A stretch of DNA of 64,000 bases, from positions 62,001-126,000 of the IMG/VR virus record IMGVR_UViG_3300025121_000776; one strand, 5' to 3'. Below, piece after piece: positions 41,074 through 63,549 of the stretch (position 1 is its first letter; the number at the start of each line of letters is the position of its first letter). A program made the translations under genes and the position numbers. Below the pieces are notes generated by a model. The model did not search any database. It was not told the origin of the DNA and saw nothing but the letters and a program-made list of their open reading frames with translations. Source of the stretch: a virus.

Positions 41074-41103
41074 AACTTTTCTAATTTTTTTTCGTATAAA
41101 TTA
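41074..41103 (+). promoter_or_regulatory. CGTATA promoter of the PncB unit
   Basis: AACTTTTC at 41074 and CGTATA at 41093, 19-nt spacing, 34 nt before the pncB start. Confidence 0.8.
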
Positions 41104-41132: not shown

Positions 41133-42332
41133 ATGAGAACAAAATCTTTGGAACCAGTAAATAAAAATTCAATTCTTTGGGCGGATTTATATAAGTTTAC
41201 AATGTGTTGGGCAATTATTAAATTTTTCCCCGAAGCAAAAGTGAGATATGAATTTATTGACCGAAACGATACGGTTTATCCAGATGAATTTGCAGTTGAG
41301 TTAAGAAAAATAGTAAATAACTATAGTCAAAAAAGATTATCTAAACAGCGTAAGGTTGAGTTTGCGAAAGCATGTCCATTCTTGCCAGCTGCTTTTTTTG
41401 ATTTTCTCGAAGGCTACATATATGACCCAAGTGAGGTCGGAATTATTCAAACAGGTGGAAAATTATCAATTCAAATTGCTGGATACTGGTACAGAACTGT
41501 TATGTGGGAAACTACACTAATGGAAGATATTTCTGAGTTATATTTTAATATGACAGGCCAAAGCGATGATAAAGTAGATATTGAGGGCGCCCTACGAAAA
41601 ACTGCAGATAAAACATCTTTATTTCACTTAAATAGCGCACAAGTTGCTGACTTCGGAACAAGAAGAGCAAAGTCAAAAGATATGCATATAGCAATGATTG
41701 ATGTGATGACAAACTCATTAATGTATAAGAATTTTATTGGCTCAAGCAATGTTGAACTTGCACTATATAATGATATTAAAGTAATTGGAACTTATGCACA
41801 TGAATGGGTTTCTGGAATAGGTGCAATGTTTGGATATGCTCATGCAAATAGAATTGCAATGGAAAAATGGTCAGAAACATATAATGGGAATTTAGGTATT
41901 GCTTTAACTGACACATTTACCACAGATGCTTTCTTGGCAGATTTTGATTCTAAATATGCAAATCTTTTCACTGGAGTAAGACACGACAGTAGTGACCCCT
42001 TCGTTTTTACAGATAAAATTATTGACCACTATAAAAAACTTGGTATTGACCCGACTACAAAAACAATCGTTTATTCTGATGGTTTGAATCCAGAAATGGT
42101 TGTTAAATTACAGGATTACCGTAGGGGTGAAATCAGAAAATCATATGGTATTGGAACTAATTTAACAAATGATATTGATGGAGTTAAACCTTTAAACATT
42201 GTTGTTAAACTTCTTGAAATAAATGGAATGGCATCTGTTAAATTATCTGACTCTCCAACGAAACACGTAGGTGACCCAGAAACAATTAAATTTATTAAAT
42301 GGCAGAATTCTCAAAGATTAATGCAAAAATAA
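41133..42332 (+). CDS. pncB: Nicotinate phosphoribosyltransferase
   Basis: Joins nicotinic acid and PRPP to give nicotinate mononucleotide, the committed step of the Preiss-Handler NAD salvage route. Recognisable blocks: 'LWADLYKFTMCWAI' at the start, 'WETTLMEDISELYFN', 'DFGTRRAKS', 'GSSNVELALYNDIKVIGTYAHEW' with the catalytic His, 'ALTDTFTTDAFLADF', 'GVRHDSSDP', 'IVYSDGLNP' and 'YGIGTNLTND'. Length (399 aa) is that of bacterial PncB. It heads an operon with the Nudix and CorA-like genes. With the nicotinamidase and NadE elsewhere in the window it forms most of the salvage pathway. Confidence 0.93.
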   Translation: MRTKSLEPVNKNSILWADLYKFTMCWAIIKFFPEAKVRYEFIDRNDTVYPDEFAVELRKIVNNYSQKRLSKQRKVEFAKACPFLPAAFFDFLEGYIYDPSEVGIIQTGGKLSIQIAGYWYRTVMWETTLMEDISELYFNMTGQSDDKVDIEGALRKTADKTSLFHLNSAQVADFGTRRAKSKDMHIAMIDVMTNSLMYKNFIGSSNVELALYNDIKVIGTYAHEWVSGIGAMFGYAHANRIAMEKWSETYNGNLGIALTDTFTTDAFLADFDSKYANLFTGVRHDSSDPFVFTDKIIDHYKKLGIDPTTKTIVYSDGLNPEMVVKLQDYRRGEIRKSYGIGTNLTNDIDGVKPLNIVVKLLEINGMASVKLSDSPTKHVGDPETIKFIKWQNSQRLMQK

Positions 42333-42334
42333 TT

Positions 42335-42928
42335 ATGGCAAGGACAATTGAAATAGCAGAGGAAACAAGGGTATTTAACGGCTACACCAAGGTGGACAAA
42401 GCATCAATAGAAGACACTTTAGAAAATGGTAAAGTAGATAAGTACACCAGAGAAAAGGTTGTAAGACCAAATGCCGTAACAGGCCTCATTTACAATACAG
42501 ATACTGAAACTATTGTTCTTGTAAAGCAATTCAGATATCCAACTAAATTAGGGAAAAGAAGCGGATTCATTTACGAAGCCATAGCTGGAAAAATAGATGG
42601 AGACGAAGACCCTCTAATAGCATTTAAAAGAGAGTGTTTAGAAGAAGTTGGATATAAACTTAAAAACAAAAACATTCAATATTGTAATTGGAGTTTTGCA
42701 ACTCCAGGATATTCAACTGAAAAACTTTACTTTTATTTAGCCAAAGCTACAAACAGAGATAAAATAAATAGAGGCGGAGGAGTAAAAGGTGAGCACGAAC
42801 ACATCGAGGTTTGCGAATTTCACTATCTTCAGTTTAAAAGTATGATGAGTGATTTAGAAGATTTAAAAACTAGATTCTTAGCATACGAAGCACATCACAG
42901 AAAATTATTTGATAAAAAGCAATATTGA
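42335..42928 (+). CDS. Nudix hydrolase, ADP-ribose-pyrophosphatase-like (197 aa)
   Basis: A perfect Nudix box GKIDGDEDPLIAFKRECLEE followed by VG-hydrophobic (G-x5-E-x7-REUxEExGU) lies at ~82-104, preceded by 'VVLVKQFRYPTK', typical of ADP-ribose and NADH pyrophosphatases. Start at the ATG 2 bases after pncB. In context it probably hydrolyses ADP-ribose left by NAD-consuming enzymes or trims NAD intermediates, feeding ribose-5-phosphate back to PRPP. Substrate is inferred from context; the family is certain. Confidence 0.88.
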   Translation: MARTIEIAEETRVFNGYTKVDKASIEDTLENGKVDKYTREKVVRPNAVTGLIYNTDTETIVLVKQFRYPTKLGKRSGFIYEAIAGKIDGDEDPLIAFKRECLEEVGYKLKNKNIQYCNWSFATPGYSTEKLYFYLAKATNRDKINRGGGVKGEHEHIEVCEFHYLQFKSMMSDLEDLKTRFLAYEAHHRKLFDKKQY

Positions 42929-43806
42929 TAACAAAATATAACATAGAGGAATTTAAGTGGATTGATGTGCTAACACCAACAGATATAGATTTAGAAATCA
43001 TATCTAAGGATTATGCTATACAACATACATTGTTGATAGACAGTATTGAATCTGGTCACCTACCTAAATACGAAATGATAGATAATTTAATATTTTTATT
43101 ATTTCGTATCTTTGACAAAAACTCAAAAGAAGGAGCTGATACCATTTCAGAATTAACTGAAAAACTTTCCATATTTTATCGTGATAATATTATTGTTACT
43201 ATACATCGTGAAGAAATTGATTTTATTACGAAAATTACCAAAAAAAATACATGCAAAAATGTTCTTGAGTTATTACTATATCTTATAAACAATTCAATAC
43301 TGTCATTTGAAAAGAGAATAAACAATGTAATCAATTCTATTGAAACAATAGAAAATCACTTGTTTAGCAAAAGAAATTCAAAATATGTTTTACAGAATTT
43401 ATATAAAATTAAAAAACAAATATATGTAATTGATAAAATATTGGATTTAAACATGGACCTAGTACAAAATGTTTTAGAGGATACTAAGATAAATAAAAAT
43501 CTAATTCAAGATGTAAAAGAGACTAATGAAAAATTCCAATTTCGCTCAACGAATATAATTGATAATATAAATAATATTATTAACATTCATTTAGCAATCG
43601 AATCCAACAAGGCCAATGACATAATGAAAATATTGACAGTTATCACATTGTTCTTTTTGCCCGCATCATTTCTGGTTGGAATTTATGGAATGAATTTTAA
43701 CATGCCAGAATTGACGTGGAAATTTGGCTATGGATGTTTTTGGATATTTTTAGTCTTAATGGAAGTTGTAATTTTTTTCATTGCAAAAAGAAAAAGGTGG
43801 CTATAA
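42925..43806 (+). CDS. CorA-family divalent-cation channel (293 aa)
   Basis: The family signature YGMNFNMPE lies at the end of the first of two C-terminal membrane helices (ILTVITLFFLPASFLVGIYGMN and FWIFLVLMEVVIFFIA). The N-terminal ~230 residues are the acidic and helical cytosolic funnel. Begins with TTG that overlaps the Nudix stop (TTGA), so it is translationally coupled. CorA proteins carry Mg2+, Co2+ or Zn2+. A phage-encoded copy beside PncB may supply Mg2+ for PRPP- and ATP-dependent enzymes. Confidence 0.85.
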   Translation: MITKYNIEEFKWIDVLTPTDIDLEIISKDYAIQHTLLIDSIESGHLPKYEMIDNLIFLLFRIFDKNSKEGADTISELTEKLSIFYRDNIIVTIHREEIDFITKITKKNTCKNVLELLLYLINNSILSFEKRINNVINSIETIENHLFSKRNSKYVLQNLYKIKKQIYVIDKILDLNMDLVQNVLEDTKINKNLIQDVKETNEKFQFRSTNIIDNINNIINIHLAIESNKANDIMKILTVITLFFLPASFLVGIYGMNFNMPELTWKFGYGCFWIFLVLMEVVIFFIAKRKRWL

Positions 43807-44850: not shown

Positions 44851-44880
44851 AACTTTTTAAAAAAAAGTTCGTATAAAATA
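44851..44880 (+). promoter_or_regulatory. CGTATA promoter of nadE
   Basis: AACTTTTT at 44851 and CGTATA at 44870, 19-nt spacing. Confidence 0.8.
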
Positions 44881-46730: not shown

Positions 46731-47117
46731 ATGATTGTAGCAATAATAGGAAGTCGTAGTTTTGAAAATTACGAACTCCTTAAATTTAAACTTCTTCCAT
46801 ATAAAGCCAGCATTACCAAAATAGTGTCGGGAGGTGCACTTGGTGCCGACAAACTTGGAGAAATATTTGCAAAAGAATTTAATATTCCAACTGAAATTTT
46901 CGAAGCTGAGTGGGAAAATTTTGCAGAGCCATGTAAAATAAAAAAGAACTCTTACGGTAAAGAATACAATGCATTGGCAGGATTCAATCGCAACACAAAA
47001 ATAATAGAGAAAGCAAATCTTGTAGCCGTATTCTGGGACGGGAAATCTCCAGGAACAAGAGATTCAATGAAGAAGGCTCACCAAATGAAAAAGGATATTT
47101 TAATTATCTATTTTTAA
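46731..47117 (+). CDS. SLOG/DUF2493-like Rossmann protein (128 aa)
   Basis: 'IVAIIGSRSFENY', 'IVSGGALGADKLGE', 'AGFNRNTKIIEKANLVAVFWDGKSPGTRDSM' are the hallmarks of the DprA/YspA-like SLOG superfamily, which binds nucleotides or nucleotide-like ligands. In phages such proteins are common and mostly uncharacterised; near NAD genes it could sense or sequester a nucleotide signal. Its stop overlaps the convergent DHFR gene by 18 bases. Fold call is good; ligand unknown. Confidence 0.8.
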   Translation: MIVAIIGSRSFENYELLKFKLLPYKASITKIVSGGALGADKLGEIFAKEFNIPTEIFEAEWENFAEPCKIKKNSYGKEYNALAGFNRNTKIIEKANLVAVFWDGKSPGTRDSMKKAHQMKKDILIIYF

Positions 47118-51249: not shown

Positions 51250-51717
51250 ATGGGAAAGTATAAAATAAAAATCAATTACAAGACTGGAAATAGTTTTGAA
51301 AGTCACAACGAATCAGATGTGCTAGAAATTGATTGGGATAATTTTGATGTTGCTAAAGAAAATTTAAAAGCAATAAAAGACCATTATATTAATGTTTATA
51401 AAGAAATAGAAGGTTCGTATTCTGCACAAAAAGACAATCAAAGTGTTTGCAAACAATATCAAAATGAATGGTGGTTTGTAAAAGTTTTAAAACCTTACTG
51501 TATTAGCAAAGATGATGCAATTTCAGAAAATCAAAAAGAAAAATATAAAAACGATTGGGAAAATAGATTTGATACGAGCATTGCCTCACGTTGCATGAAG
51601 CTAAAAACCGATGATGGTTCATTAATGCAAATGCAATGCTTTTGGTGTGGCTATTTTGAGACCTTGCATGGTGCAAAAATTGAAGTGGATGAATCTGATA
51701 CAGAATTTGAGTTGTAA
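51250..51717 (+). CDS. Hypothetical protein (155 aa)
   Basis: Acidic; contains several Trp and 'QCFWCGYFETLHG', a possible half zinc site. First gene after a CGTATA promoter and immediately upstream of the CoaC fusion, so likely in the same programme. Not recognised. Confidence 0.6.
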   Translation: MGKYKIKINYKTGNSFESHNESDVLEIDWDNFDVAKENLKAIKDHYINVYKEIEGSYSAQKDNQSVCKQYQNEWWFVKVLKPYCISKDDAISENQKEKYKNDWENRFDTSIASRCMKLKTDDGSLMQMQCFWCGYFETLHGAKIEVDESDTEFEL

Positions 51718-51744
51718 CAAGAGACTTTTATATGAAAAACGCAA

Positions 51745-51760
51745 TAATTCGTATAATAAC
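51745..51760 (+). promoter_or_regulatory. Weak CGTATA promoter before CoaC
   Basis: CGTATA at 51750, 20 nt before the CoaC start, but no AAC box at the usual 19-nt distance; an additional internal promoter at best. Confidence 0.4.
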
Positions 51761-51769
51761 AAAATCTTT

Positions 51770-52867
51770 ATGAAAACTATTCTAATGGCTATCTCTGGCG
51801 GTATTTCCGCCTATAAAGCTGCTGATGTAATTAGTGGGCTTAAAAAAAATGGATTTGAGGTTCATGTTATTACAACAAAAAACGCTTTGAATTTTATTGC
51901 CCCCACAGTTATAGGTGCCGTCTCTGGCGGTCATTATGTAACTGATGAAGATGTAAATAAAATCAATCATATTAACGAAGCTCAAAATTGTGATGCATTC
52001 ATCTGCGTTCCAGCGACAGCAAATATCATTGCGAAATTTGCACATGGAATAGCAGATGATTTTGTTTCATCTACTTTCATAGCAATTCCAAGAGGGGTTC
52101 CGAAAATTATATGCCCAGCAATGAACACAGTAATGTTTGAAAGCGAAGCTTGTCTCATGAATTTAAAAACATTGCAAGAGAGGGGGTGTCATATTATTGA
52201 ACCTGTTAGCGGAGAACTTGCTTGCGGTGTTGTTGGAATTGGAAAGCTTCCAAAACCAAGAGATATCGTAAAAGAGGTTATTGAACTTTTTGACACAAGC
52301 AAGCCGTGGTTGTGGCCGCTTCACAAAATGACCCCAACAAAAACTACAGAAGATTCAAATTCATTTTTAAGAATAAGCTTGGAAAGAGAAGTTGAGATTC
52401 CTATAAAATATCACTTTGGTGCTTTTGGAGCCATGAGAAGATTTGACAGACATAGGGGAGTAGATTTATATGCTCCAGTTGGTACTCCTGTGTTTGCTGT
52501 ACAAAAGGGCATAGTTAGAGATATTCGTCCATGGACTGGAACAAATGCTGATTGTGATTGGTGGAATGACACCGATGCAATTTCTGTTGAAGGAGAAGAC
52601 GGACTCGTTGTTTATGGTGAATTGGAAGTAAATTCTGAACTAAAGATTGGAGATGAAGTTAAAGCTGGAGACTTATTGGGACTTGTTTTACGAGTTCTAA
52701 AAAAAGATAAAGGAAGACCAACTAGTATGCTTCATTTGGAACTAAGAAAACCAGGGTTTTACAGAAATATAGATAAAGAATGGAGTCAAGATTTACCAGA
52801 AGGTTTACTTGACCCAACTCCATTCCTTATAAGGGCAATGAAACAACATCATCAATTTAAAAAATAA
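51770..52867 (+). CDS. Phosphopantothenoylcysteine decarboxylase (CoaC) fused to an M23 peptidase-like domain (365 aa)
   Basis: Residues 1-~180 are a flavoprotein of the CoaC family: 'MAISGGISAYKAADVI', 'INHINEAQNCDAFICVPATANIIAKFAHGIADD' with the active-site His, 'CPAMNTVMF' and the substrate-clamp 'ELACGVVGIGKLP'. It decarboxylates 4'-phosphopantothenoylcysteine, step three of CoA synthesis. Residues ~220-355 match M23/LytM domains: 'RHRGVDLYAPVGTPVFAV' (H-x3-D), 'VKAGDLLGLVL' and 'MLHLEL' in place of H-x-H, so zinc binding may be lost. CoaB, the previous step, is encoded 1.5 kb downstream. The fusion is unusual and its purpose unknown. Confidence 0.82.
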   Translation: MKTILMAISGGISAYKAADVISGLKKNGFEVHVITTKNALNFIAPTVIGAVSGGHYVTDEDVNKINHINEAQNCDAFICVPATANIIAKFAHGIADDFVSSTFIAIPRGVPKIICPAMNTVMFESEACLMNLKTLQERGCHIIEPVSGELACGVVGIGKLPKPRDIVKEVIELFDTSKPWLWPLHKMTPTKTTEDSNSFLRISLEREVEIPIKYHFGAFGAMRRFDRHRGVDLYAPVGTPVFAVQKGIVRDIRPWTGTNADCDWWNDTDAISVEGEDGLVVYGELEVNSELKIGDEVKAGDLLGLVLRVLKKDKGRPTSMLHLELRKPGFYRNIDKEWSQDLPEGLLDPTPFLIRAMKQHHQFKK

Positions 52868-54328: not shown

Positions 54329-54988
54329 ATGAAAGTTTTAATTACCAGCGGGGGAACACGTGAATATATTGACGATGTTAGAGTTTTAACAAACATAAGT
54401 ACGGGAAAGTTGGGTGCAACAATTGCAAATACATTTTTTGCAAATGCTTATCATAACAAAATAGAAAAGGTTTATTATATTTGTAGTAAAGGTTCATTTC
54501 CTGCAATTAAAGATGGAGATAAATTTATTGAAACAATTTATGCTGACAGCGTTCAAGAAGTTTATGATGTAATGGAAAAAATGGTTCCCCAGGTTGATGT
54601 GGTTATTCATGCAATGGCCTTAAGTGACTTTGGGTTTAAACCATCACATACAAAGTTAAAAAGTAATGACCCTCAAGCCTTCATAGATTCGCTCAGAGAC
54701 CGAATTATTATTAATCCAAAGGTTATCTCATTTATTAAAAAATGGAACCCCACAGTTAAACTAATAAGCTTTAAATTTGAAGTTGGCAAAACCAAAGAAG
54801 AGTTGATTGATATTGCTTATGAATCTTTAATTAAAAACGATGGAGATTTTGTTATAGCCAATGATAAAATAGAAATGAAAGAAAAGGGCAGTCATATAGC
54901 TTATATAATTAACAAAGATAAGAAAATTGTTGACTGTGATGGTAAGGATGATATAGCTAAACAATTGCTAAAAATATTATCTACTTAA
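54329..54988 (+). CDS. coaB: Phosphopantothenate-cysteine ligase
   Basis: Couples 4'-phosphopantothenate with cysteine to give the CoaC substrate. The stand-alone CoaB domain is recognised by 'VLITSGGTREYIDDVRVLTNISTGKLGATIA' start motifs, 'DVVIHAMALSDFGF', the K-x-K 'HTKLKS', 'NPKVISFIKKW', 'LISFKFEV' and 'DFVIANDK'. In most bacteria it is fused to CoaC; here the two are separate genes and CoaC has another partner. Only CoaB and CoaC are seen in the window; CoaA, CoaD and CoaE would come from the host or outside it. Confidence 0.9.
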   Translation: MKVLITSGGTREYIDDVRVLTNISTGKLGATIANTFFANAYHNKIEKVYYICSKGSFPAIKDGDKFIETIYADSVQEVYDVMEKMVPQVDVVIHAMALSDFGFKPSHTKLKSNDPQAFIDSLRDRIIINPKVISFIKKWNPTVKLISFKFEVGKTKEELIDIAYESLIKNDGDFVIANDKIEMKEKGSHIAYIINKDKKIVDCDGKDDIAKQLLKILST

Positions 54989-56170: not shown

Positions 56171-56200
56171 AACATTTTTATTTTTTTTTCGTATACACAA
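56171..56200 (+). promoter_or_regulatory. CGTATA promoter of the nicotinamidase-TerYP-rSAM operon
   Basis: AACATTTTT at 56171 and CGTATA at 56190, 19-nt spacing, 36 nt before the first start. Confidence 0.8.
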
Positions 56201-56231: not shown

Positions 56232-57041
56232 ATGAAAAAAAATGCATTATTAATTATTGACGGACAGAACGACTTTTGTAGCCCTTCGGGTGCTCTCTTC
56301 GTTCCTGGAGCAGACCATGATATGGAGCGTCTAGCTAATTTTATTAAAAGAAATCAAACAAAAATTGGTTATATTGGTTTGACCCAAGATAGCCATATGG
56401 TTCTTGATATTAGTCATCCCCCATTTTGGCAGGATAAAGACGGAAATTCTCCAAATCCATTTACTATTATTACAGCTCAAAACGTAAAAGATGGAACGTG
56501 GACTCCAAAATTTTATCCACTGGCCGCTCTTAAATATTTAGAAGACCTTGAAGCTCAAGGGGAATTTCCACATTGTATATGGCCAATTCATTGTGTTGAT
56601 GGCAGTGAAGGTGCAGCTATTTTTCCAGTTCTTATGAACTCTGTAAAAGAATGGTCAGCTTCTCAGTGTTTATTTCACAAAATTGTTAAAAAGGGAGTTC
56701 ATCCTTTAACCGAGCACTTCGGCGTGTTTCAAGCAAACATTCCAATTCCAGGCGAGGACGGAACACAATTCAACGACAGGTTAGCAAAAATTCTTAATGA
56801 ATATGATACTGTGTATTTCGCAGGAGAAGCTAAAACTCACTGTACCGCTACTTCTTTAAAACAAGCAATGAAGTTTGATAAAAACCTTGCTAAAAAATTC
56901 GTTATCCTTGAAGATTGTATGTCTCCTGTTCCAGGAGAAGCTGCACCAGGACTTACCTTTGAAAAATTGGCTCAGCCAATCTATGATGATGCTAAAGCTC
57001 TTGGCATTCAATTTGTAAAAAGCACAGATGTTACACTATAA
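56232..57041 (+). CDS. Nicotinamidase (PncA-like cysteine hydrolase, 269 aa)
   Basis: Deamidates nicotinamide to nicotinic acid, the PncB substrate. Asp10 (IIDGQNDFC), metal site 'LTQDSH' (D-x-H), 'WPIHCVDGSEGA', and catalytic Cys204 in 'FAGEAKTHCTATS' give the D-K-C triad and zinc-binding layout of nicotinamidases, with 'WTPKFYP' typical of the longer members. First gene of an operon with the vWA, PP2C, kinase and rSAM genes, all under the CGTATA promoter. Other isochorismatase-like substrates cannot be excluded, but the WPxHC motif and PncB/NadE context favour nicotinamide. Confidence 0.85.
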   Translation: MKKNALLIIDGQNDFCSPSGALFVPGADHDMERLANFIKRNQTKIGYIGLTQDSHMVLDISHPPFWQDKDGNSPNPFTIITAQNVKDGTWTPKFYPLAALKYLEDLEAQGEFPHCIWPIHCVDGSEGAAIFPVLMNSVKEWSASQCLFHKIVKKGVHPLTEHFGVFQANIPIPGEDGTQFNDRLAKILNEYDTVYFAGEAKTHCTATSLKQAMKFDKNLAKKFVILEDCMSPVPGEAAPGLTFEKLAQPIYDDAKALGIQFVKSTDVTL

Positions 57042-57052
57042 TTTTAAAAACA

Positions 57053-57766
57053 ATGGATAACAATAAAGTGAATTTCGATTTCGGTGGTGACGCCGACTTT
57101 AATCCCGAAAATATCGAGGTAGAAGAAACAATCAATGCAGTATTTGTAGTTGACCTGTCTGCCTCTATGGGCGAAGAAGTAACTCTTAAAGGCGGCACAA
57201 CCTCAACAAGATGCGATGAGCTTAATAAAGCTGTTAATGAATTTGTTGAGAATATGTCAAAAAGCCATGTTAAAGACCGTTTGTTAGTATCAACTATTGT
57301 TTTTGATGCAAAACCAGAAGTTCTTACAGGCTTCCAACCCGTAACAGAAATTGAAGAATTTAAACTTACTCCAAAACACGGTAATACCGCACTTTATGGA
57401 GCCGTAAGACTTGGTTTGGACAAAGCTATTGACTACAGAAACTCTCTGTTAAAAACAGGCGTAAAAGCAAAAACTATCCTTTTTGTTGTTACTGATGGTG
57501 AAAACAATGCTTCTCCACAAAGTGATGCAGAATATGTGAAAGTTAAGTTACAGGAACTAAACAAAGAAGAACAGAATATTATGACATTCTCTTCAGTTCT
57601 TTTGGGAATTGGCGAACAGGCTAATTTTAAACAAGCATTTGATGATTTAGGCTTACATGCCCTAGCTGAACTTGGTGATGATATCAGAAAAGCTGTATCT
57701 ATTATCAGTAGCTCAGTATCAAGTGTTTCAAACGGGCAAAACATTTCTCAGAAATTAAATTTCTAA
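57053..57766 (+). CDS. von Willebrand factor A (TerY-like) protein (237 aa)
   Basis: A cytosolic vWA domain with an intact MIDAS: 'VFVVDLSASMGEE' (D-x-S-x-S), 'GNTALYGAV' and 'FVVTDGENN'. Such proteins bind Mg2+ and partner proteins. Its order next to a PP2C and a kinase is the TerY-P triad described by comparative genomics in tellurite/stress-response loci. Start 11 bases after the nicotinamidase; PP2C starts 2 bases after its stop. Confidence 0.88.
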   Translation: MDNNKVNFDFGGDADFNPENIEVEETINAVFVVDLSASMGEEVTLKGGTTSTRCDELNKAVNEFVENMSKSHVKDRLLVSTIVFDAKPEVLTGFQPVTEIEEFKLTPKHGNTALYGAVRLGLDKAIDYRNSLLKTGVKAKTILFVVTDGENNASPQSDAEYVKVKLQELNKEEQNIMTFSSVLLGIGEQANFKQAFDDLGLHALAELGDDIRKAVSIISSSVSSVSNGQNISQKLNF

Positions 57767-57768
57767 AA

Positions 57769-58545
57769 ATGTTCGAAGTTAAAGCCAGAAAAGTAGTAAG
57801 GCGAGGGAGAGCTCATGACCAACGTTGTGAAGACGATTCCCTCGTCTTCTCTTATAATCAAATTTCAGTTATTGCAGTATTTGATGGATGCTCTGATGGA
57901 ACGGATTCTTATTTTGCATCTGGTTTATTTGCTAAAATATTAAAAAAAATAGCAATTGAGGAAGAAAATTTTTTTAAACAAATCAACGAAGAAACAAGTC
58001 TTGAAGATATAGTAAATGTAATAATGTGTTCCTTTTTTTATGAACTAAAGAAGGCAAAATATTATTTAAAGCTTGATGATTCAGAAATATTGTCAACAAT
58101 AGTTCTATCTGCCATTAATTTAAAAACAAAACAATCCTTTTCTATTATTATTGGAGATGGAAGTGTTTATGTTGACGGAGAAATTAATACAATACAACCA
58201 GAAAAAAACGCACCTCGATATATAGCTTATTTTCTTGGAAAAAAATATGAAGATTTTTGGAGTGATGATGTTAATAAATATAAAGCCAAAGTAAAAGATA
58301 CAATAGCTGTAATGAGTGATGGAATTGACTCATTTAGACATTATAGCGAAAACAGATATGTAAACGAAACTGAAAAGGCTGATATTATTCATCGTTTTTT
58401 TAAAAGCGGATATCTTCTTGACAATAAAGTTGGGCTTGCAAGAATTTGTAATATTCTTGACAGTGAACATTTTGCTCCAAGTGATGATTTATCTATTGCC
58501 CATATAACTTTCATAGAAATTCCAGAACAAGATGAAACTATATAA
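57769..58545 (+). CDS. PP2C-family protein phosphatase (258 aa)
   Basis: All metal-coordinating blocks are present: 'RGRAHDQRCEDD' (D at the start), 'VIAVFDGCSDGTDS' (DG), 'IIIGDGSVYVD' (GD), 'AVMSDGIDSF' (SDG) and 'SDDLSIAHI' (DD). It removes phosphate from Ser/Thr residues, probably of the vWA protein or of targets of the kinase that follows. Overlaps the kinase start by 14 bases, so the two are expressed together in fixed ratio. Confidence 0.88.
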   Translation: MFEVKARKVVRRGRAHDQRCEDDSLVFSYNQISVIAVFDGCSDGTDSYFASGLFAKILKKIAIEEENFFKQINEETSLEDIVNVIMCSFFYELKKAKYYLKLDDSEILSTIVLSAINLKTKQSFSIIIGDGSVYVDGEINTIQPEKNAPRYIAYFLGKKYEDFWSDDVNKYKAKVKDTIAVMSDGIDSFRHYSENRYVNETEKADIIHRFFKSGYLLDNKVGLARICNILDSEHFAPSDDLSIAHITFIEIPEQDETI

Positions 58546-60208
58546 TAAAATAGGCACTCTGGTCAACGTTGATGAAAGCAAAGAGATTGCTAGGGGTGGA
58601 GAAGGAATGATTATAGATATGGGGCATGGAAAAGCCGCCAAAATTTATCATGATACCAAAAACGCATCTTTCACCGAATCAAAACTTCAACATTTATATG
58701 GACTTGATAGCTCTGTTTTTATAAGACCAGAAGAAATTCTTTTTTATAAAAACAAAAAAATAGCTGGATTCATTATGAATATGTTGCCTAAAAATTTCTT
58801 TCCTCTATATTCAGCCTTTAGTTATAATTTCTGTGCCACAAATGGATTGACAGATAAAATAAAATTACAAATAATTAAAACCATTATAAAAAGCATTAAT
58901 TCAGCTCACTCAAAAGATATTATTATTGGAGATTTTAACCCCTTTAATATAATGCTGGACGATAAAGGTACCACTTTCTTTATTGATACAGATTCATATC
59001 AAACTCCAGGGTCAGTGCATTCTGGCAAATTATTAGATGATATCAGAGACCATTTAAAACATGGCGTAATAAATAAAGAGAGTGACTACTATGCTCTTGC
59101 GGTAATAGTGTTTAATTTTCTAACTAATATACACCCCTTTAAAGGCTCACATTCAATTTATAAAAGCCTTCCAGAACGTGCAATTCAAAAAATTACAGTA
59201 TTTGATAATGACCCACACCTAATTGTTCCAAAGTGTTATCACCCTATCCAAGACAAATATTTAATGGAACAATTTAAGAGAATATTTAAAGATGGGGAAA
59301 GATTTGCAATTAGCCTTGATGCTACAACAGATATTATTCATGTAATTAATATCGACAAAGTTATTGAAAAAGAAGGAGAATTAACAATTACGCCAATGTT
59401 AAGAAATGTTGAAATAAGATATGTCAATTGCAGTAACAACCTTGCTTGTGTAGCACTTAAAGACGAAATTATTGTTTATAGCGTGAGAGATAGGGGCTTC
59501 TACAAAGAACTTGGCAGAATACCAAGAACAAGTAAAGATTTAGCTCCGCTTCCAACTGATAAAAACTTATTTGTATTTGAAGATAAAAAGTTCTACAAAT
59601 ACGACCTTGACACCTTTCAAAGAACTGAAATGGATGATATGGGTATTGAAAACATGGTTGTTGCAAAGCAATATGGAAATATATTTGTTGTAATTGAAGA
59701 AAATAAAATGTTTACGTTATATTTGGATGATTCTGTTGGAACACACATTAGATTTAAAACAAAAGAAGTGTTCGGAAACAGTTTTAAAAAGTATAATGGT
59801 ATGATGCAAAATTTTGGCCAGAACACTTACTTAAGAGTAAATAATAATGATAATCTCGATACAATTATCTATGATGATGTATTAAGTGATGTTTACCAAG
59901 ATGGAGATATGGGAATTGCCCAGACTGTAAAAAAAGGAAAAATAAATTTCGACCTATTCAAAATTAATGGCCTTAAACTTGAAAAACATTCTTACCCCCT
60001 TAATTCTATCAGACACTTCGGTTATAATCCTGGCAACTTCATTATTATGCCAGAGGATAATCAATTAATATTCCTTAATCACAGCACATTGGAACCAATT
60101 GCTAAGTTTAAGTGTAGCATTGCCGATGAATCAACACAGGTGTTTTATACAAGGGGAGGAATCTTATTGAACGATTCGAAGAATTTATATATGGTAAACA
60201 AAAAGTAG
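58532..60208 (+). CDS. Protein kinase with C-terminal beta-propeller-like region (558 aa)
   Basis: Residues 1-~290 are a kinase fold: Gly-rich loop 'IARGGEGMIIDM', Lys in 'GKAAKIYHD', catalytic segment 'DIIIGDFNPFNIMLD' and, in the DFG position, 'FFIDTDSYQTPG', as in kinases of TerY-P loci that lack classical HRD/DFG wording. Residues ~300-558 are repeated strands ('LFVFEDKKFYKYDLD', 'GNIFVVIEENKMFTLYLDD') suggesting a propeller for substrate binding. It is the third member of the vWA-PP2C-kinase triad. Confidence 0.82.
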   Translation: MKLYNKIGTLVNVDESKEIARGGEGMIIDMGHGKAAKIYHDTKNASFTESKLQHLYGLDSSVFIRPEEILFYKNKKIAGFIMNMLPKNFFPLYSAFSYNFCATNGLTDKIKLQIIKTIIKSINSAHSKDIIIGDFNPFNIMLDDKGTTFFIDTDSYQTPGSVHSGKLLDDIRDHLKHGVINKESDYYALAVIVFNFLTNIHPFKGSHSIYKSLPERAIQKITVFDNDPHLIVPKCYHPIQDKYLMEQFKRIFKDGERFAISLDATTDIIHVINIDKVIEKEGELTITPMLRNVEIRYVNCSNNLACVALKDEIIVYSVRDRGFYKELGRIPRTSKDLAPLPTDKNLFVFEDKKFYKYDLDTFQRTEMDDMGIENMVVAKQYGNIFVVIEENKMFTLYLDDSVGTHIRFKTKEVFGNSFKKYNGMMQNFGQNTYLRVNNNDNLDTIIYDDVLSDVYQDGDMGIAQTVKKGKINFDLFKINGLKLEKHSYPLNSIRHFGYNPGNFIIMPEDNQLIFLNHSTLEPIAKFKCSIADESTQVFYTRGGILLNDSKNLYMVNKK

Positions 60209-60209
60209 T

Positions 60210-60698
60210 ATGAAAGAACCTCAAAGCCCCTTACCATTCAAGCAAAACACTTGGGATATTATTGTTTACAATGAAAGTAAAAATGAATATGAATCTATTT
60301 TTGACCCACATGATAAAATGCTTGACAATCTTAAAGATTGTGCATACATTGTAGAGGCAAGTAACAATTACCCCAAAGCAGTAGAACTACTCAGACAAGT
60401 TCTCGCTGGAAAAAACGATACAACGATAATTGAATTGTTTTTAAAAGAAATAGATGCTATTGATGAATTTGGAGACCAAACTTTTACCTCTAATTTTAAT
60501 ATTAAATTAAAAGGGTCTGAATCAGCAAAACACTTTAAAAGTATTTTTCCAAGATTTTGTAAATCTCTTGATGTTGAATGCACAATCACAACAAAAAGAA
60601 GATTTTTGCCATGGAAACCAATTAGTGCAACATTAAGTATTTCGGGTGCCAGATTAAATGTAAAAAAAGCATCACTAGCAATCGAATGGTTATTATAA
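60210..60698 (+). CDS. Hypothetical protein in the kinase-rSAM operon (162 aa)
   Basis: Not recognised. Two regions look foldable: a helical N-terminal half ('AVELLRQVLAGKNDTTII') and a strand-rich C-terminal half ('VECTITTKRRFLPWKPISAT'). Begins 1 base after the kinase stop and 20 bases before the rSAM gene. A role as recognition or scaffold subunit is plausible from position only. Confidence 0.65.
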   Translation: MKEPQSPLPFKQNTWDIIVYNESKNEYESIFDPHDKMLDNLKDCAYIVEASNNYPKAVELLRQVLAGKNDTTIIELFLKEIDAIDEFGDQTFTSNFNIKLKGSESAKHFKSIFPRFCKSLDVECTITTKRRFLPWKPISATLSISGARLNVKKASLAIEWLL

Positions 60699-60718
60699 AT
60701 TTAAAAAACTAAAAAACT

Positions 60719-61858
60719 ATGCAAAAACCACCAATTAAACTAAGAGAAATTATCTGGGAAATAACTGGACAATGTTTTAATAATTGTTCATATTGTGGCT
60801 CAAAAGATGTGTCTAAAAAAGCCCTTACACACGAACAAATCATTGACATTGCTCAAGCTATTGCTGATTTTCCCCCAAAAGAAATTAACATAAGTGGAGG
60901 AGACCCATTAACTCTTCCAGCTGACCTTCATATTGAAATTTTAAGGATTTTAAAACAGTCAGAAATAGTCTGCAAAATTATTGTTAATCCAAAATCCATT
61001 AAAAACCCATTATCTGCAGCTTTTGAAATTGTTAAAATGTATGATTGGGCTGGAATTTCTATTAATACCCAAAAAGAATTACAAATCTTTGAAGATATCG
61101 CAGAAACTAAAGAATATGAAAATTACACCGTCATAACAAATTTTAACATTCAAAATCTTTATCAATTTGAAGAAATTGAAGCGTTTGTTAAAAAATATGA
61201 TAAAATGTGGACAATTCAATTTACAGTTTATCAAGACAAAGATAATCCACTTGCTTTATACCATCCAGATAATCAAATTGCTTTTGAATTATTACAACAA
61301 AAGGTTAATACAAGTTCAGCAAAAATAGTTCTATCAGACAATATAAGAAATGATATGCCTTGCGGTGCTGGATTTAGCTCTGTAGGCATCACATATGATG
61401 GTTATGTTATTCCATGTTTAAGTATGAGAAGTTGGAGGGATATTCAAAATTTATGTGAAAAAGAAATATATCAAAATATTTTAAAAACTCCTTTTGAGGA
61501 AATTTGGCAAACATCTTTTATTAATGAAAGATTTTGTAAATTTGAATGTTGCAAAGACATATGTCTCAATAAAACTCTCGAAATAAAAAGTTTTGAAAGA
61601 AAAGTATTTGAGATAACTCCAAAGTCTGAAGAAGAAAAAAAAGATTGGGAAAAAAACATTAATGAATTTTTAAAAAAAGTTAAAAAGGAAAATCCTCCAT
61701 TTGATGCAGGGCAAGTTGTTATGTATGGGGTTATTTCTCCAAGAAATTTTCCAGGTGGTGGCGGAGTTGTTATGTATGGGGTCATTTCTCCAAGAAACTA
61801 CCCTCCCGATGACGACAATGGCGGCGGAATTGTTTTAATGTATGGTGTATTTAGGTAA
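60719..61858 (+). CDS. Radical SAM/SPASM enzyme with fused substrate-like repeats at the C-terminus (379 aa)
   Basis: Cys19/23/26 in 'CFNNCSYCG' bind the SAM [4Fe-4S] cluster; 'NISGGDPLT' is the SAM-binding motif. C-terminal cysteines ('DMPCGAGFSSVGITYDG', 'VIPCLSMR', 'FCKFECCKDIC') form a SPASM/Twitch-like auxiliary-cluster site, as in peptide-modifying enzymes. After a coiled linker the last 48 residues contain 'VVMYGVISPRNFP', a Gly-rich linker, 'VVMYGVISPRNYP', an Asp/Gly linker, and 'IVLMYGVFR': two near-identical copies and a partial one, resembling the core of a modified peptide fused to its enzyme. Last gene of the operon, followed by a terminator. Enzyme class is sure; self-modification is inference. 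Confidence 0.9.
   Translation: MQKPPIKLREIIWEITGQCFNNCSYCGSKDVSKKALTHEQIIDIAQAIADFPPKEINISGGDPLTLPADLHIEILRILKQSEIVCKIIVNPKSIKNPLSAAFEIVKMYDWAGISINTQKELQIFEDIAETKEYENYTVITNFNIQNLYQFEEIEAFVKKYDKMWTIQFTVYQDKDNPLALYHPDNQIAFELLQQKVNTSSAKIVLSDNIRNDMPCGAGFSSVGITYDGYVIPCLSMRSWRDIQNLCEKEIYQNILKTPFEEIWQTSFINERFCKFECCKDICLNKTLEIKSFERKVFEITPKSEEEKKDWEKNINEFLKKVKKENPPFDAGQVVMYGVISPRNFPGGGGVVMYGVISPRNYPPDDDNGGGIVLMYGVFR
61715..61855 (+). repeat. Three-fold VMYGV(ISPRN) repeat inside the rSAM gene
   Basis: Units at 61715-61753, 61766-61804 and a shortened one at 61829-61855. The first two are separated by 51 bp between starts (17 codons) and differ at few bases; all keep V-(V/L)-MYGV. Confidence 0.85.
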
Positions 61859-61888: not shown

Positions 61889-61916
61889 AAAAAATCCTCC
61901 AGTTGGAGGATTTTTT
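61889..61916 (+). terminator. Rho-independent terminator closing the 56-62 kb operon
   Basis: AAAATCCTCC-AGTT-GGAGGATTTT plus T-run. Confidence 0.9.
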
Positions 61917-62571: not shown

Positions 62572-62601
62572 AACATTTTTTAGTTTTTTTCGTATATGTT
62601 A
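62572..62601 (+). promoter_or_regulatory. CGTATA promoter of the cation-efflux gene
   Basis: AACATTTTT at 62572 and CGTATA at 62591, 19-nt spacing. The ATG at 62596 overlaps it and was rejected as start. Confidence 0.78.
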
Positions 62602-62628
62602 AAAACATGTACAATTAAATCAAAAAAA

Positions 62629-63549
62629 ATGTCACAAGGAAATTCGCTAAAAGCTGTAGTTGTTGCATTATTTAGCAATGCATTTATCGCACTAATCAAA
62701 TTTATAGTTGCATTTATAACTACCAGTGCCGCTATGATGGCTGAAGCGATTCACTCTACTGCAGATTGTATGAACCAAATATTTTTATTAATTGGGTCTA
62801 AGAGAACCAAAAAAGTAGCCAATGAGCAACATTCTTTCGGATATGGAAAAGAAGAATATTTCTGGGGATTTATTGTTGCAACATTATTGTTCTTTGTTGG
62901 GGGTGGTTTTTCTATTTATGAAGGAATTCATAAGTTGTTTGTTCCAGAGCCAATTAAAAATGTTATGTTATCCTTTATCGTTTTAGGAATTGGAATAGTC
63001 TTAGAATTCAACTCGTTTAGAATTGCTTATAATCAATTTAAAATTAAAAATAATTCATCCTTTTACAAAGGACTCATTGAAGTGACCGATACAAATCTTT
63101 TGGTAATTTTACTTGAAGACTTTGCGGCATTACTTGGATTAATAGTTGTTTTAATTACCACTATTTTAGCTTTTACAATAGCTCCTATATTTGATGCAAT
63201 TGGTTCCATACTTGTGGGTGCAATTCTTATTTCAATCGCTTATATGCTCTCTAATGAGCTCAGAAAATTAATTGTTGGAGAAAGCATTCCTAGAGAAATA
63301 AGAACTGATATAAAACACATCTGCTCACAGCATAATAAAATTGTTAAACATGTAAATAAAATTCAAACAATGTTTATTGGCAGAGAAAAATTTGTTCTTC
63401 TTATATCTTTGGATGTTTATGATAATATTTTAGCATATGATGTAGAAAACATAATTGAACACATAAAACTCGATATTATCAAAAAATATCCCAATGCTTC
63501 GGTTATTTATATTGAAGTAAAGGATATGATAAGAAATAATAAAATTTAA
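62629..63549 (+). CDS. Cation diffusion facilitator (CDF) metal transporter (306 aa)
   Basis: Five to six hydrophobic spans precede a C-terminal cytosolic domain. TM2 carries 'MMAEAIHSTADCMNQ' (H-x3-D), and TM5 'VILLEDFAALLG' provides the second metal site; 'HSFGYGKEEYFWGF' is the conserved loop after TM2. CDF proteins export Zn2+, Mn2+ or Fe2+. Start at the ATG after the promoter (306 aa). A phage-encoded exporter beside a CorA importer elsewhere suggests metal management in infection. Confidence 0.88.
   Translation: MSQGNSLKAVVVALFSNAFIALIKFIVAFITTSAAMMAEAIHSTADCMNQIFLLIGSKRTKKVANEQHSFGYGKEEYFWGFIVATLLFFVGGGFSIYEGIHKLFVPEPIKNVMLSFIVLGIGIVLEFNSFRIAYNQFKIKNNSSFYKGLIEVTDTNLLVILLEDFAALLGLIVVLITTILAFTIAPIFDAIGSILVGAILISIAYMLSNELRKLIVGESIPREIRTDIKHICSQHNKIVKHVNKIQTMFIGREKFVLLISLDVYDNILAYDVENIIEHIKLDIIKKYPNASVIYIEVKDMIRNNKI

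What the first reader, a model, noticed from the sequence alone, without database searches (positions are those of the whole stretch)
56232..61858. Phage operon joining nicotinamidase, a TerY-P-like triad and a radical SAM enzyme
Seen: six genes with gaps of 1-20 bp or overlaps, one CGTATA promoter (56171-56200) and one terminator (61889). Known: vWA + PP2C + kinase is the TerY-P triad of stress and defence loci; PncA makes nicotinic acid for NAD salvage. Inferred: a phosphorylation-controlled module, perhaps counter-defence or inter-phage exclusion, in which the rSAM product is the effector and NAD status the input. I know of no described phage system with this composition.
Basis: partly seen in the sequence, partly recalled or inferred. 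Interest (0 to 1): 0.9.

Follow-up and report, generated by a model that had tools for sequence, protein, structure and literature searches.

The report
Huge-phage NAD salvage kinase cassette
A four-gene unit that joins a nicotinamide-recycling enzyme to a protein kinase, a matching phosphatase and a metal-dependent binding protein is kept in the same order in about 90 distinct very large phages and in some bacteria, next to the other NAD-making genes, which suggests that these phages carry a phosphorylation-controlled NAD supply that I could not find described.

Summary
The six ORFs are real, but they are not one system. The first four (PncA-like nicotinamidase, vWA, PP2C, kinase) form a conserved cassette. 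I found 93 non-redundant complete copies in phage contigs, 83 of them in exactly this order on one strand. All catalytic residues are essentially invariant across 114 cassettes (93 phage, 21 cellular). The 162-aa ORF and the radical SAM gene have no relative in any of 163 phage and viral loci, or in 295 Bacteroidales genomes for rSAM, so they are local additions.

The cassette belongs to NAD salvage. Its commonest neighbours are Nudix, nicotinate phosphoribosyltransferase (PncB) and NAD synthetase (NadE). The window itself carries PncB and NadE, each behind the same bipartite promoter as the cassette. Chromosomal versions in Bacteroidota read nrtR-pncB-pncA-vWA-PP2C-kinase-nadE. The nicotinamide-route enzyme (NAMPT/NadV type) is absent from 40 of 40 cassette phages. 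The kinase has a C-terminal beta-propeller, unlike TerY-P kinases.

Best reading: a Preiss-Handler NAD salvage unit with its own phospho-switch, shared by huge phages and bacteria. Genomic association is shown; catalysis, kinase targets and any counter-defence role are inferred. I found no published description in the open-access library.

The parts
56232..57041 (+). PncA-subfamily nicotinamidase, 269 aa, first gene of the cassette
   Evidence: PRK11609 nicotinamidase 45 bits. Profile hits in PDB led by nicotinamidases, yeast Pnc1 1e-23. AF2 pLDDT 97.6, Foldseek top 21 all nicotinamidases/pyrazinamidases. D10, D53, H55, H120, K154, C204 invariant in 113-114 of 114.
57053..57766 (+). vWA-domain protein, 237 aa, intact MIDAS
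   Evidence: VWA_2 2.5e-8; MIDAS D34, S/T36, S38, T112, D148 in 114 of 114.
57769..58545 (+). PP2C-type Ser/Thr phosphatase, 258 aa
   Evidence: PP2C_2 7.2e-11; metal Asp residues D39, D130, D184, D240 in 114 of 114.
58532..60208 (+). Ser/Thr-type kinase with C-terminal beta-propeller, 558 aa
   Evidence: Pkinase 1e-5. AF2 pLDDT 92: kinase lobe about 1-255, all-beta 279-557. Foldseek: kinases plus Vps18 and Nup159 propellers. K37, D134, N139, D152 nearly invariant.
56171..56195 (+). bipartite promoter AACATTTT-N11-CGTATA of the cassette
41133..42332 (+). PncB, nicotinate phosphoribosyltransferase
   Evidence: TIGR01514 382 bits, cut-off 269.6
41074..41098 (+). same promoter type (AACTTTTC-N11-CGTATA) 35 bp before pncB
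42299..42928 (+). Nudix hydrolase of the YffH/AdpP family overlapping the end of pncB; candidate ADP-ribose pyrophosphatase
   Evidence: NUDIX 9.5e-12; TIGR00052 72 bits, just under its cut-off, NudK 86 bits
44918..45739 (+). NadE, NH3-dependent NAD synthetase
   Evidence: TIGR00552 158 bits, cut-off 63.65; found independently
44851..44875 (+). same promoter type before nadE
61889..61916 (+). terminator-like hairpin ending the transcription unit
60210..60698 (+). 162-aa orphan ORF; in the same unit here but not part of the conserved module
   Evidence: no family, no relative
60719..61858 (+). radical SAM/SPASM protein with MYGV repeats in its tail; in the same unit here but not part of the conserved module
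   Evidence: Radical_SAM 1.4e-9, SPASM 1e-5; no relative

Best explanation
The first four genes are a conserved, horizontally shared NAD salvage cassette. PncA deamidates nicotinamide to nicotinate, and PncB, a NadD-type enzyme (phage or host) and NadE rebuild NAD by the Preiss-Handler route. The attached kinase (with a beta-propeller scaffold or sensor), PP2C and MIDAS-type vWA form a reversible phosphorylation switch that tunes this pathway, most likely acting on PncA or a partner enzyme held by the vWA or propeller. In huge phages it would keep NAD high during infection, and could undo NAD depletion by host NADase defences by recycling the nicotinamide released. Shown here: gene content, order, conservation, catalytic residues, linkage to NAD genes, a shared promoter in the window. 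Inferred: enzyme activities, the phospho-targets, the direction of control, and the counter-defence benefit. The rSAM and 162-aa genes are local riders.
For: Order pncA-vWA-PP2C-kinase in 83 of 93 non-redundant phage modules, median span 5.0 kb. Of 80 kinase-anchored loci 73 have pncA; of 80 pncA-anchored loci 71 have the kinase. Catalytic residues of all four proteins nearly invariant in 114 cassettes. The four distance matrices correlate, r 0.67-0.82, permutation maximum 0.20. Unbiased neighbour clustering puts Nudix, PncB and NadE first of 1,755 neighbour proteins. Within about 9 kb, 38 of 93 have pncB, nadE or nadD, 53 of 93 counting Nudix, and pncB or nadE lies inside the cassette in 7 loci each. 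Whole records: NadE in 33 of 40, NAPRT in 30 of 40, NAMPT in 0 of 40. Bacterial nrtR-pncB-pncA-vWA-PP2C-kinase-nadE operons, with NrtR confirmed by its winged-helix domain. In the window, pncB, nadE and the cassette share one promoter type. Isolate Variovorax sp. SRS16 carries pncA-vWA and PP2C-kinase-pncB in one replicon.
Against: No biochemical data. NadD was not found in the window's record, which is probably incomplete. Orphan propeller kinases exist in some Bacteroidales, so the kinase can work without PncA, and standalone PncA of this subfamily exists. 40 of 93 phage loci show none of the NAD neighbours within 9 kb. The huge-phage comparison lacks a matched control set: other large phages also carry PncB or NadE. 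Several bacterial cassettes are on short MAG contigs that could be phage DNA.
Confidence: 0.62

Rival explanations
1. The triad is an independent signalling or stress module of TerY-P type, for example exclusion of other phages or host takeover by phosphorylation, and PncA serves it by removing nicotinamide or supplying NAD. NAD is the fuel, not the target.
For: The vWA + PP2C + kinase plan matches TerY-P triads, which occur in defence loci (PMC11090510). Kinase similarity to PD-T4-6 and MADS kinases. Orphan propeller kinases without PncA.
Against: PncA is the most tightly linked partner (median pncA-vWA gap 39 bp). Operons contain nrtR, pncB and nadE rather than defence genes. TerY profile only 18 bits and no zinc ribbon.
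Confidence: 0.25
2. An ordinary NAD salvage auxiliary metabolic gene set; the triad is carried along by old linkage and does something unrelated.
For: Phage PncB and NadE genes are already annotated singly in isolate phages.
Against: Fixed order and intact active sites over proteins down to 13-24% identity, and in several phyla, are hard to explain by passive linkage.
Confidence: 0.1
3. One reading: phospho-controlled production of an rSAM-modified product as effector.
For: Same transcription unit in this phage (gaps 1-20 bp, one terminator). The rSAM tail carries three MYGV repeats that look like core peptides.
Against: No homologue of the rSAM or the 162-aa ORF in 163 phage and viral loci, in the annotated phages, in the viral contigs (rSAM), or (rSAM) in 295 Bacteroidales genomes.
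Confidence: 0.03

Closest known systems
TerY-P triad (vWA + PP2C + Ser/Thr kinase; Anantharaman 2012 as cited in PMC11090510)
   Same: Same three protein classes adjacent on one strand, with intact MIDAS, PP2C and kinase active sites
   Different: Kinase C-terminus is a beta-propeller, not a zinc ribbon or OB fold; partner genes are NAD salvage genes; sequence similarity to TerY models is marginal
Phage NAD salvage by NadV/NadM/NadR (KVP40 type; PMC9503650, PMC7824862)
   Same: Phage-encoded NAD production from nicotinamide, in large phages
   Different: Here nicotinamide is first deamidated (PncA, PncB, NadE); NAMPT/NadV is absent from 40 of 40 records; a phospho-signalling triad is attached
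NARP1 (Adps + Namat; PMC12774641)
   Same: Rebuilds NAD from products of NADases
   Different: NARP1 joins ADP-ribose pyrophosphate to nicotinamide in two steps; none of its NAMPT-like enzyme was seen here, and this route has more steps
NrtR-controlled bacterial NAD operons
   Same: nrtR beside pncB, pncA and nadE in Bacteroidota and Betaproteobacteria
   Different: A vWA-PP2C-kinase triad is inserted in the operon; I found no report of this in the papers searched

Membership tests
Nicotinamidase (PncA) | Catalytic Asp-Lys-Cys triad and metal site Asp-His-His | tested here: met
   D10, D53, H55, H120, K154, C204 invariant
Nicotinamidase (PncA) | Fold and profile nearest to nicotinamidases rather than other isochorismatase-like hydrolases | tested here: met
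Nicotinamidase (PncA) | Hydrolysis of nicotinamide | not testable with these tools
   needs enzyme assay; the NCBIfam equivalog cut-off is not reached (45 of 174 bits)
TerY-P triad | vWA with MIDAS beside PP2C and kinase | tested here: met
TerY-P triad | vWA of the TerY family | tested here: inconclusive
   PADLOC TerY 18 bits for the window protein, none for L004 or L172
TerY-P triad | kinase fused to C-terminal zinc ribbon (or OB fold in TerY-P-like) | tested here: not met
   beta-propeller instead; definition from PMC11090510
Preiss-Handler salvage | PncA, PncB and NadE in the same genome | tested here: met
   window:
Preiss-Handler salvage | NadD in the same genome | tested here: inconclusive
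   none in the window record; 27 of 40 records at E<=1e-3, only 9 over the cut-off
NadV (NAMPT) phage salvage or NARP1 | NAMPT-like phosphoribosyltransferase | tested here: not met
   PF18127 in 0 of 40; Adps was not searched for
pVip (prokaryotic viperin), for the rSAM gene | viperin-type rSAM without SPASM domain | tested here: not met
   pVip 41 bits, but SPASM is above its cut-off; that viperins lack SPASM is from my own knowledge

The most novel reading that the evidence does not exclude
A previously undescribed NAD-homeostasis signalling system: a propeller kinase, PP2C and vWA sense NAD or ADP-ribose state and switch deamidated NAD salvage on and off by phosphorylation, and huge phages have taken it from bacteria repeatedly to resist NAD-depleting immunity.
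Probability: 0.4. Interest if true: 0.9.

Novelty: new variant of a known kind. Interest (0 to 1): 0.8.

Why it matters
NAD is a central battleground between phages and bacteria, and the known phage answers use nicotinamide directly (NadV) or ADP-ribose (NARP1). This would be another phage route, and one that carries its own reversible phosphorylation control, so it would link kinase signalling to NAD supply in phages and bacteria alike. It gives function-neutral annotations (cysteine hydrolase, vWA, PP2C, hypothetical kinase) in many huge phages a testable joint role, and offers an isolate (Variovorax sp. SRS16) for a test.

Tried and rejected
Single-protein scans of viral contigs with the window rSAM and kinase found nothing; only alignments of phage relatives reached the family. 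The 38-row alignment was too diverse for a contig scan. rSAM as a module member: rejected. Defence-system membership: PADLOC matches are weak and generic. Phage-only module: rejected by chromosomal copies. Single origin of the phage copies: not supported; phage labels need 11 changes on the PncA tree, at least 3 forced by starred branches. Kinase hits in 11 of 198 Bacteroidales genomes: five of these loci were opened and all five held the kinase alone, so this rate must not be read as cassette frequency. The control set of cassette-free huge phages reached only four records and was not taken further.

Full report
What is there. The six ORFs exist as described, with gaps of 11, 2, -14, 1 and 20 bp, a strong hairpin terminator at 61889-61916, and a promoter at 56171-56195. 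That promoter is real and recurrent: AACNTTTT-N-CGTATA occurs nine times in the 187-kb record, always with a spacer of exactly 11 although 5-16 was allowed, against two hits for the reversed control. The window belongs to a 186,855-bp virus record with endolysin, helicase, SbcC-like and thymidylate synthase genes of phage families.

What is conserved. Relatives first appeared in three huge phages of 462-595 kb: LR756500, LR745208 and LR756511. Alignment-based scans then gave 159 further loci. HMM mapping shows pncA, vWA, PP2C and kinase together and in this order on one strand in 83 of 93 complete modules that remain after removing kinases more than 90% identical; 80 remain at 60% and 35 at 40%. 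The association holds from both ends: 73 of 80 kinase-anchored loci carry pncA and 71 of 80 pncA-anchored loci carry the kinase, although some loci are cut by contig ends. The rSAM and the 162-aa ORF have no homologue in any of these loci, in annotated phages or, for the rSAM, in 295 Bacteroidales genomes.

Active sites. Across 114 cassettes (93 phage, 21 cellular) the nicotinamidase triad and metal ligands, the kinase K-D-N-D, the vWA MIDAS and the PP2C metal aspartates are practically invariant, while median pairwise identity is only 0.26-0.45. The PncA profile and its model (pLDDT 97.6) are closest to solved nicotinamidases. The kinase model (pLDDT 92) is a kinase domain followed by a beta-propeller. 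Its low pTM (0.53) means that the relative placement of the two parts is not reliable.

Link to NAD. Without any prior, the most frequent neighbour families around the phage cassettes are Nudix, PncB and NadE. With family HMMs, 32, 32 and 29 of 93 loci have Nudix, PncB and NadE, and 14 have NadD, within about 9 kb. In seven loci each, pncB or nadE sits inside the cassette. At genome level, 33 of 40 records have NadE and 30 of 40 NAPRT, while the nicotinamide-specific NAMPT is in none. The window phage itself has PncB, an AdpP-type Nudix and NadE, and pncB, nadE and the cassette each start behind the same promoter. Three of about ten such promoters in the window serve these three units; I treat this as supportive, not decisive.

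Bacteria have it too. A scan of prokaryote genomes found the PncA subfamily alone or in the same cassette. In Labilibaculum and a Bacteroidales MAG the order is nrtR-pncB-pncA-vWA-PP2C-kinase-nadE, the second with a NADAR gene inside. Other Bacteroidota copies lie beside genes that read as atpG and atpA; a Zambryskibacteria copy follows pncB, nadE and an adenylyltransferase; Betaproteobacteria copies have nrtR beside pncA. NrtR is the established NAD regulator, and its winged-helix domain scores 73-94 bits here. The housekeeping neighbours are my reading of the translated sequences. An isolate replicon of Variovorax sp. SRS16 has pncA-vWA with a Nudix gene, an NAD kinase and a macro-domain gene, and 17 kb away PP2C-kinase-pncB. 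On the PncA tree the phage rows need 11 label changes, at least 3 of them on well-supported branches; the window clusters with a group of phages beside Bacteroidota. This implies several transfers between cells and phages; the direction is not resolved.

How it most likely works. From established enzymology, PncA turns nicotinamide into nicotinate, and PncB, NadD and NadE complete NAD. The AdpP-type Nudix could return ADP-ribose to ribose-5-phosphate and AMP. The kinase and PP2C can add and remove phosphate, and the vWA and propeller can hold partners. That this switch acts on the NAD pathway is inferred from co-conservation, order and correlated divergence; no target is known. A counter-defence role is plausible because NADase defences release nicotinamide, and because NADAR and Nudix genes recur nearby and a macro-domain gene lies in the Variovorax locus, but nothing here tests it.

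Comparison with the literature. The 2022 survey of 21,191 viral proteomes describes only NadV, NadM and NadR as phage NAD synthesis and never mentions nicotinamidase, PP2C or TerY. The jumbo phage review is similar. NARP1 uses Adps and Namat. Ten searches of the open-access library found no paper joining nicotinamidase with a vWA-PP2C-kinase set in phages or bacteria. Subscription papers are not covered, so absence is not proof. The triad resembles TerY-P in plan, but the kinase lacks the zinc ribbon or OB fold that defines those sets, so I do not file it as TerY-P.

Limits. The genome-level NAD enrichment has no size-matched control. IMG/VR records are often fragments. Some MAG contigs may be phage. 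No activity has been shown for any of the proteins.

Noticed in passing
window 61700-61858: The rSAM/SPASM protein ends in three VMYGV/LMYGV repeats (33-nt DNA repeat, 97% identical, 51 bp apart), which looks like core-peptide repeats fused to their own maturase.
   Followed up: partly
window 7070, 36836, 41093, 44870, 51228, 56190, 62591 (+); 11988, 38752, 10847 (-): A phage-specific bipartite promoter AACWTTTT-N11-CGTATA marks about ten transcription units.
   Followed up: partly
window 51647-52867 and 54329-54988: Separate CoaC-like and CoaB-like genes of coenzyme A synthesis just before the cassette; CoaB-like genes also occur near other cassettes.
   Followed up: partly
window 42925-43806 and 62596-63549: CorA-type Mg transporter between Nudix and nadE, and a CDF metal transporter after the cassette.
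   Followed up: no
window 46731-47117: YspA-type SLOG domain protein, a family linked to NAD/ADP-ribose-derived nucleotides.
   Followed up: no
L020:16081-18690: A radical SAM gene that appears interrupted by an intein-like sequence.
   Followed up: no
L269-L273: Solitary propeller kinases in Bacteroidales without pncA, vWA or PP2C nearby.
   Followed up: partly
L275:6992-7831: PncA-subfamily gene beside an RNA ligase gene on an 882-kb Vibrio parahaemolyticus replicon.
   Followed up: no
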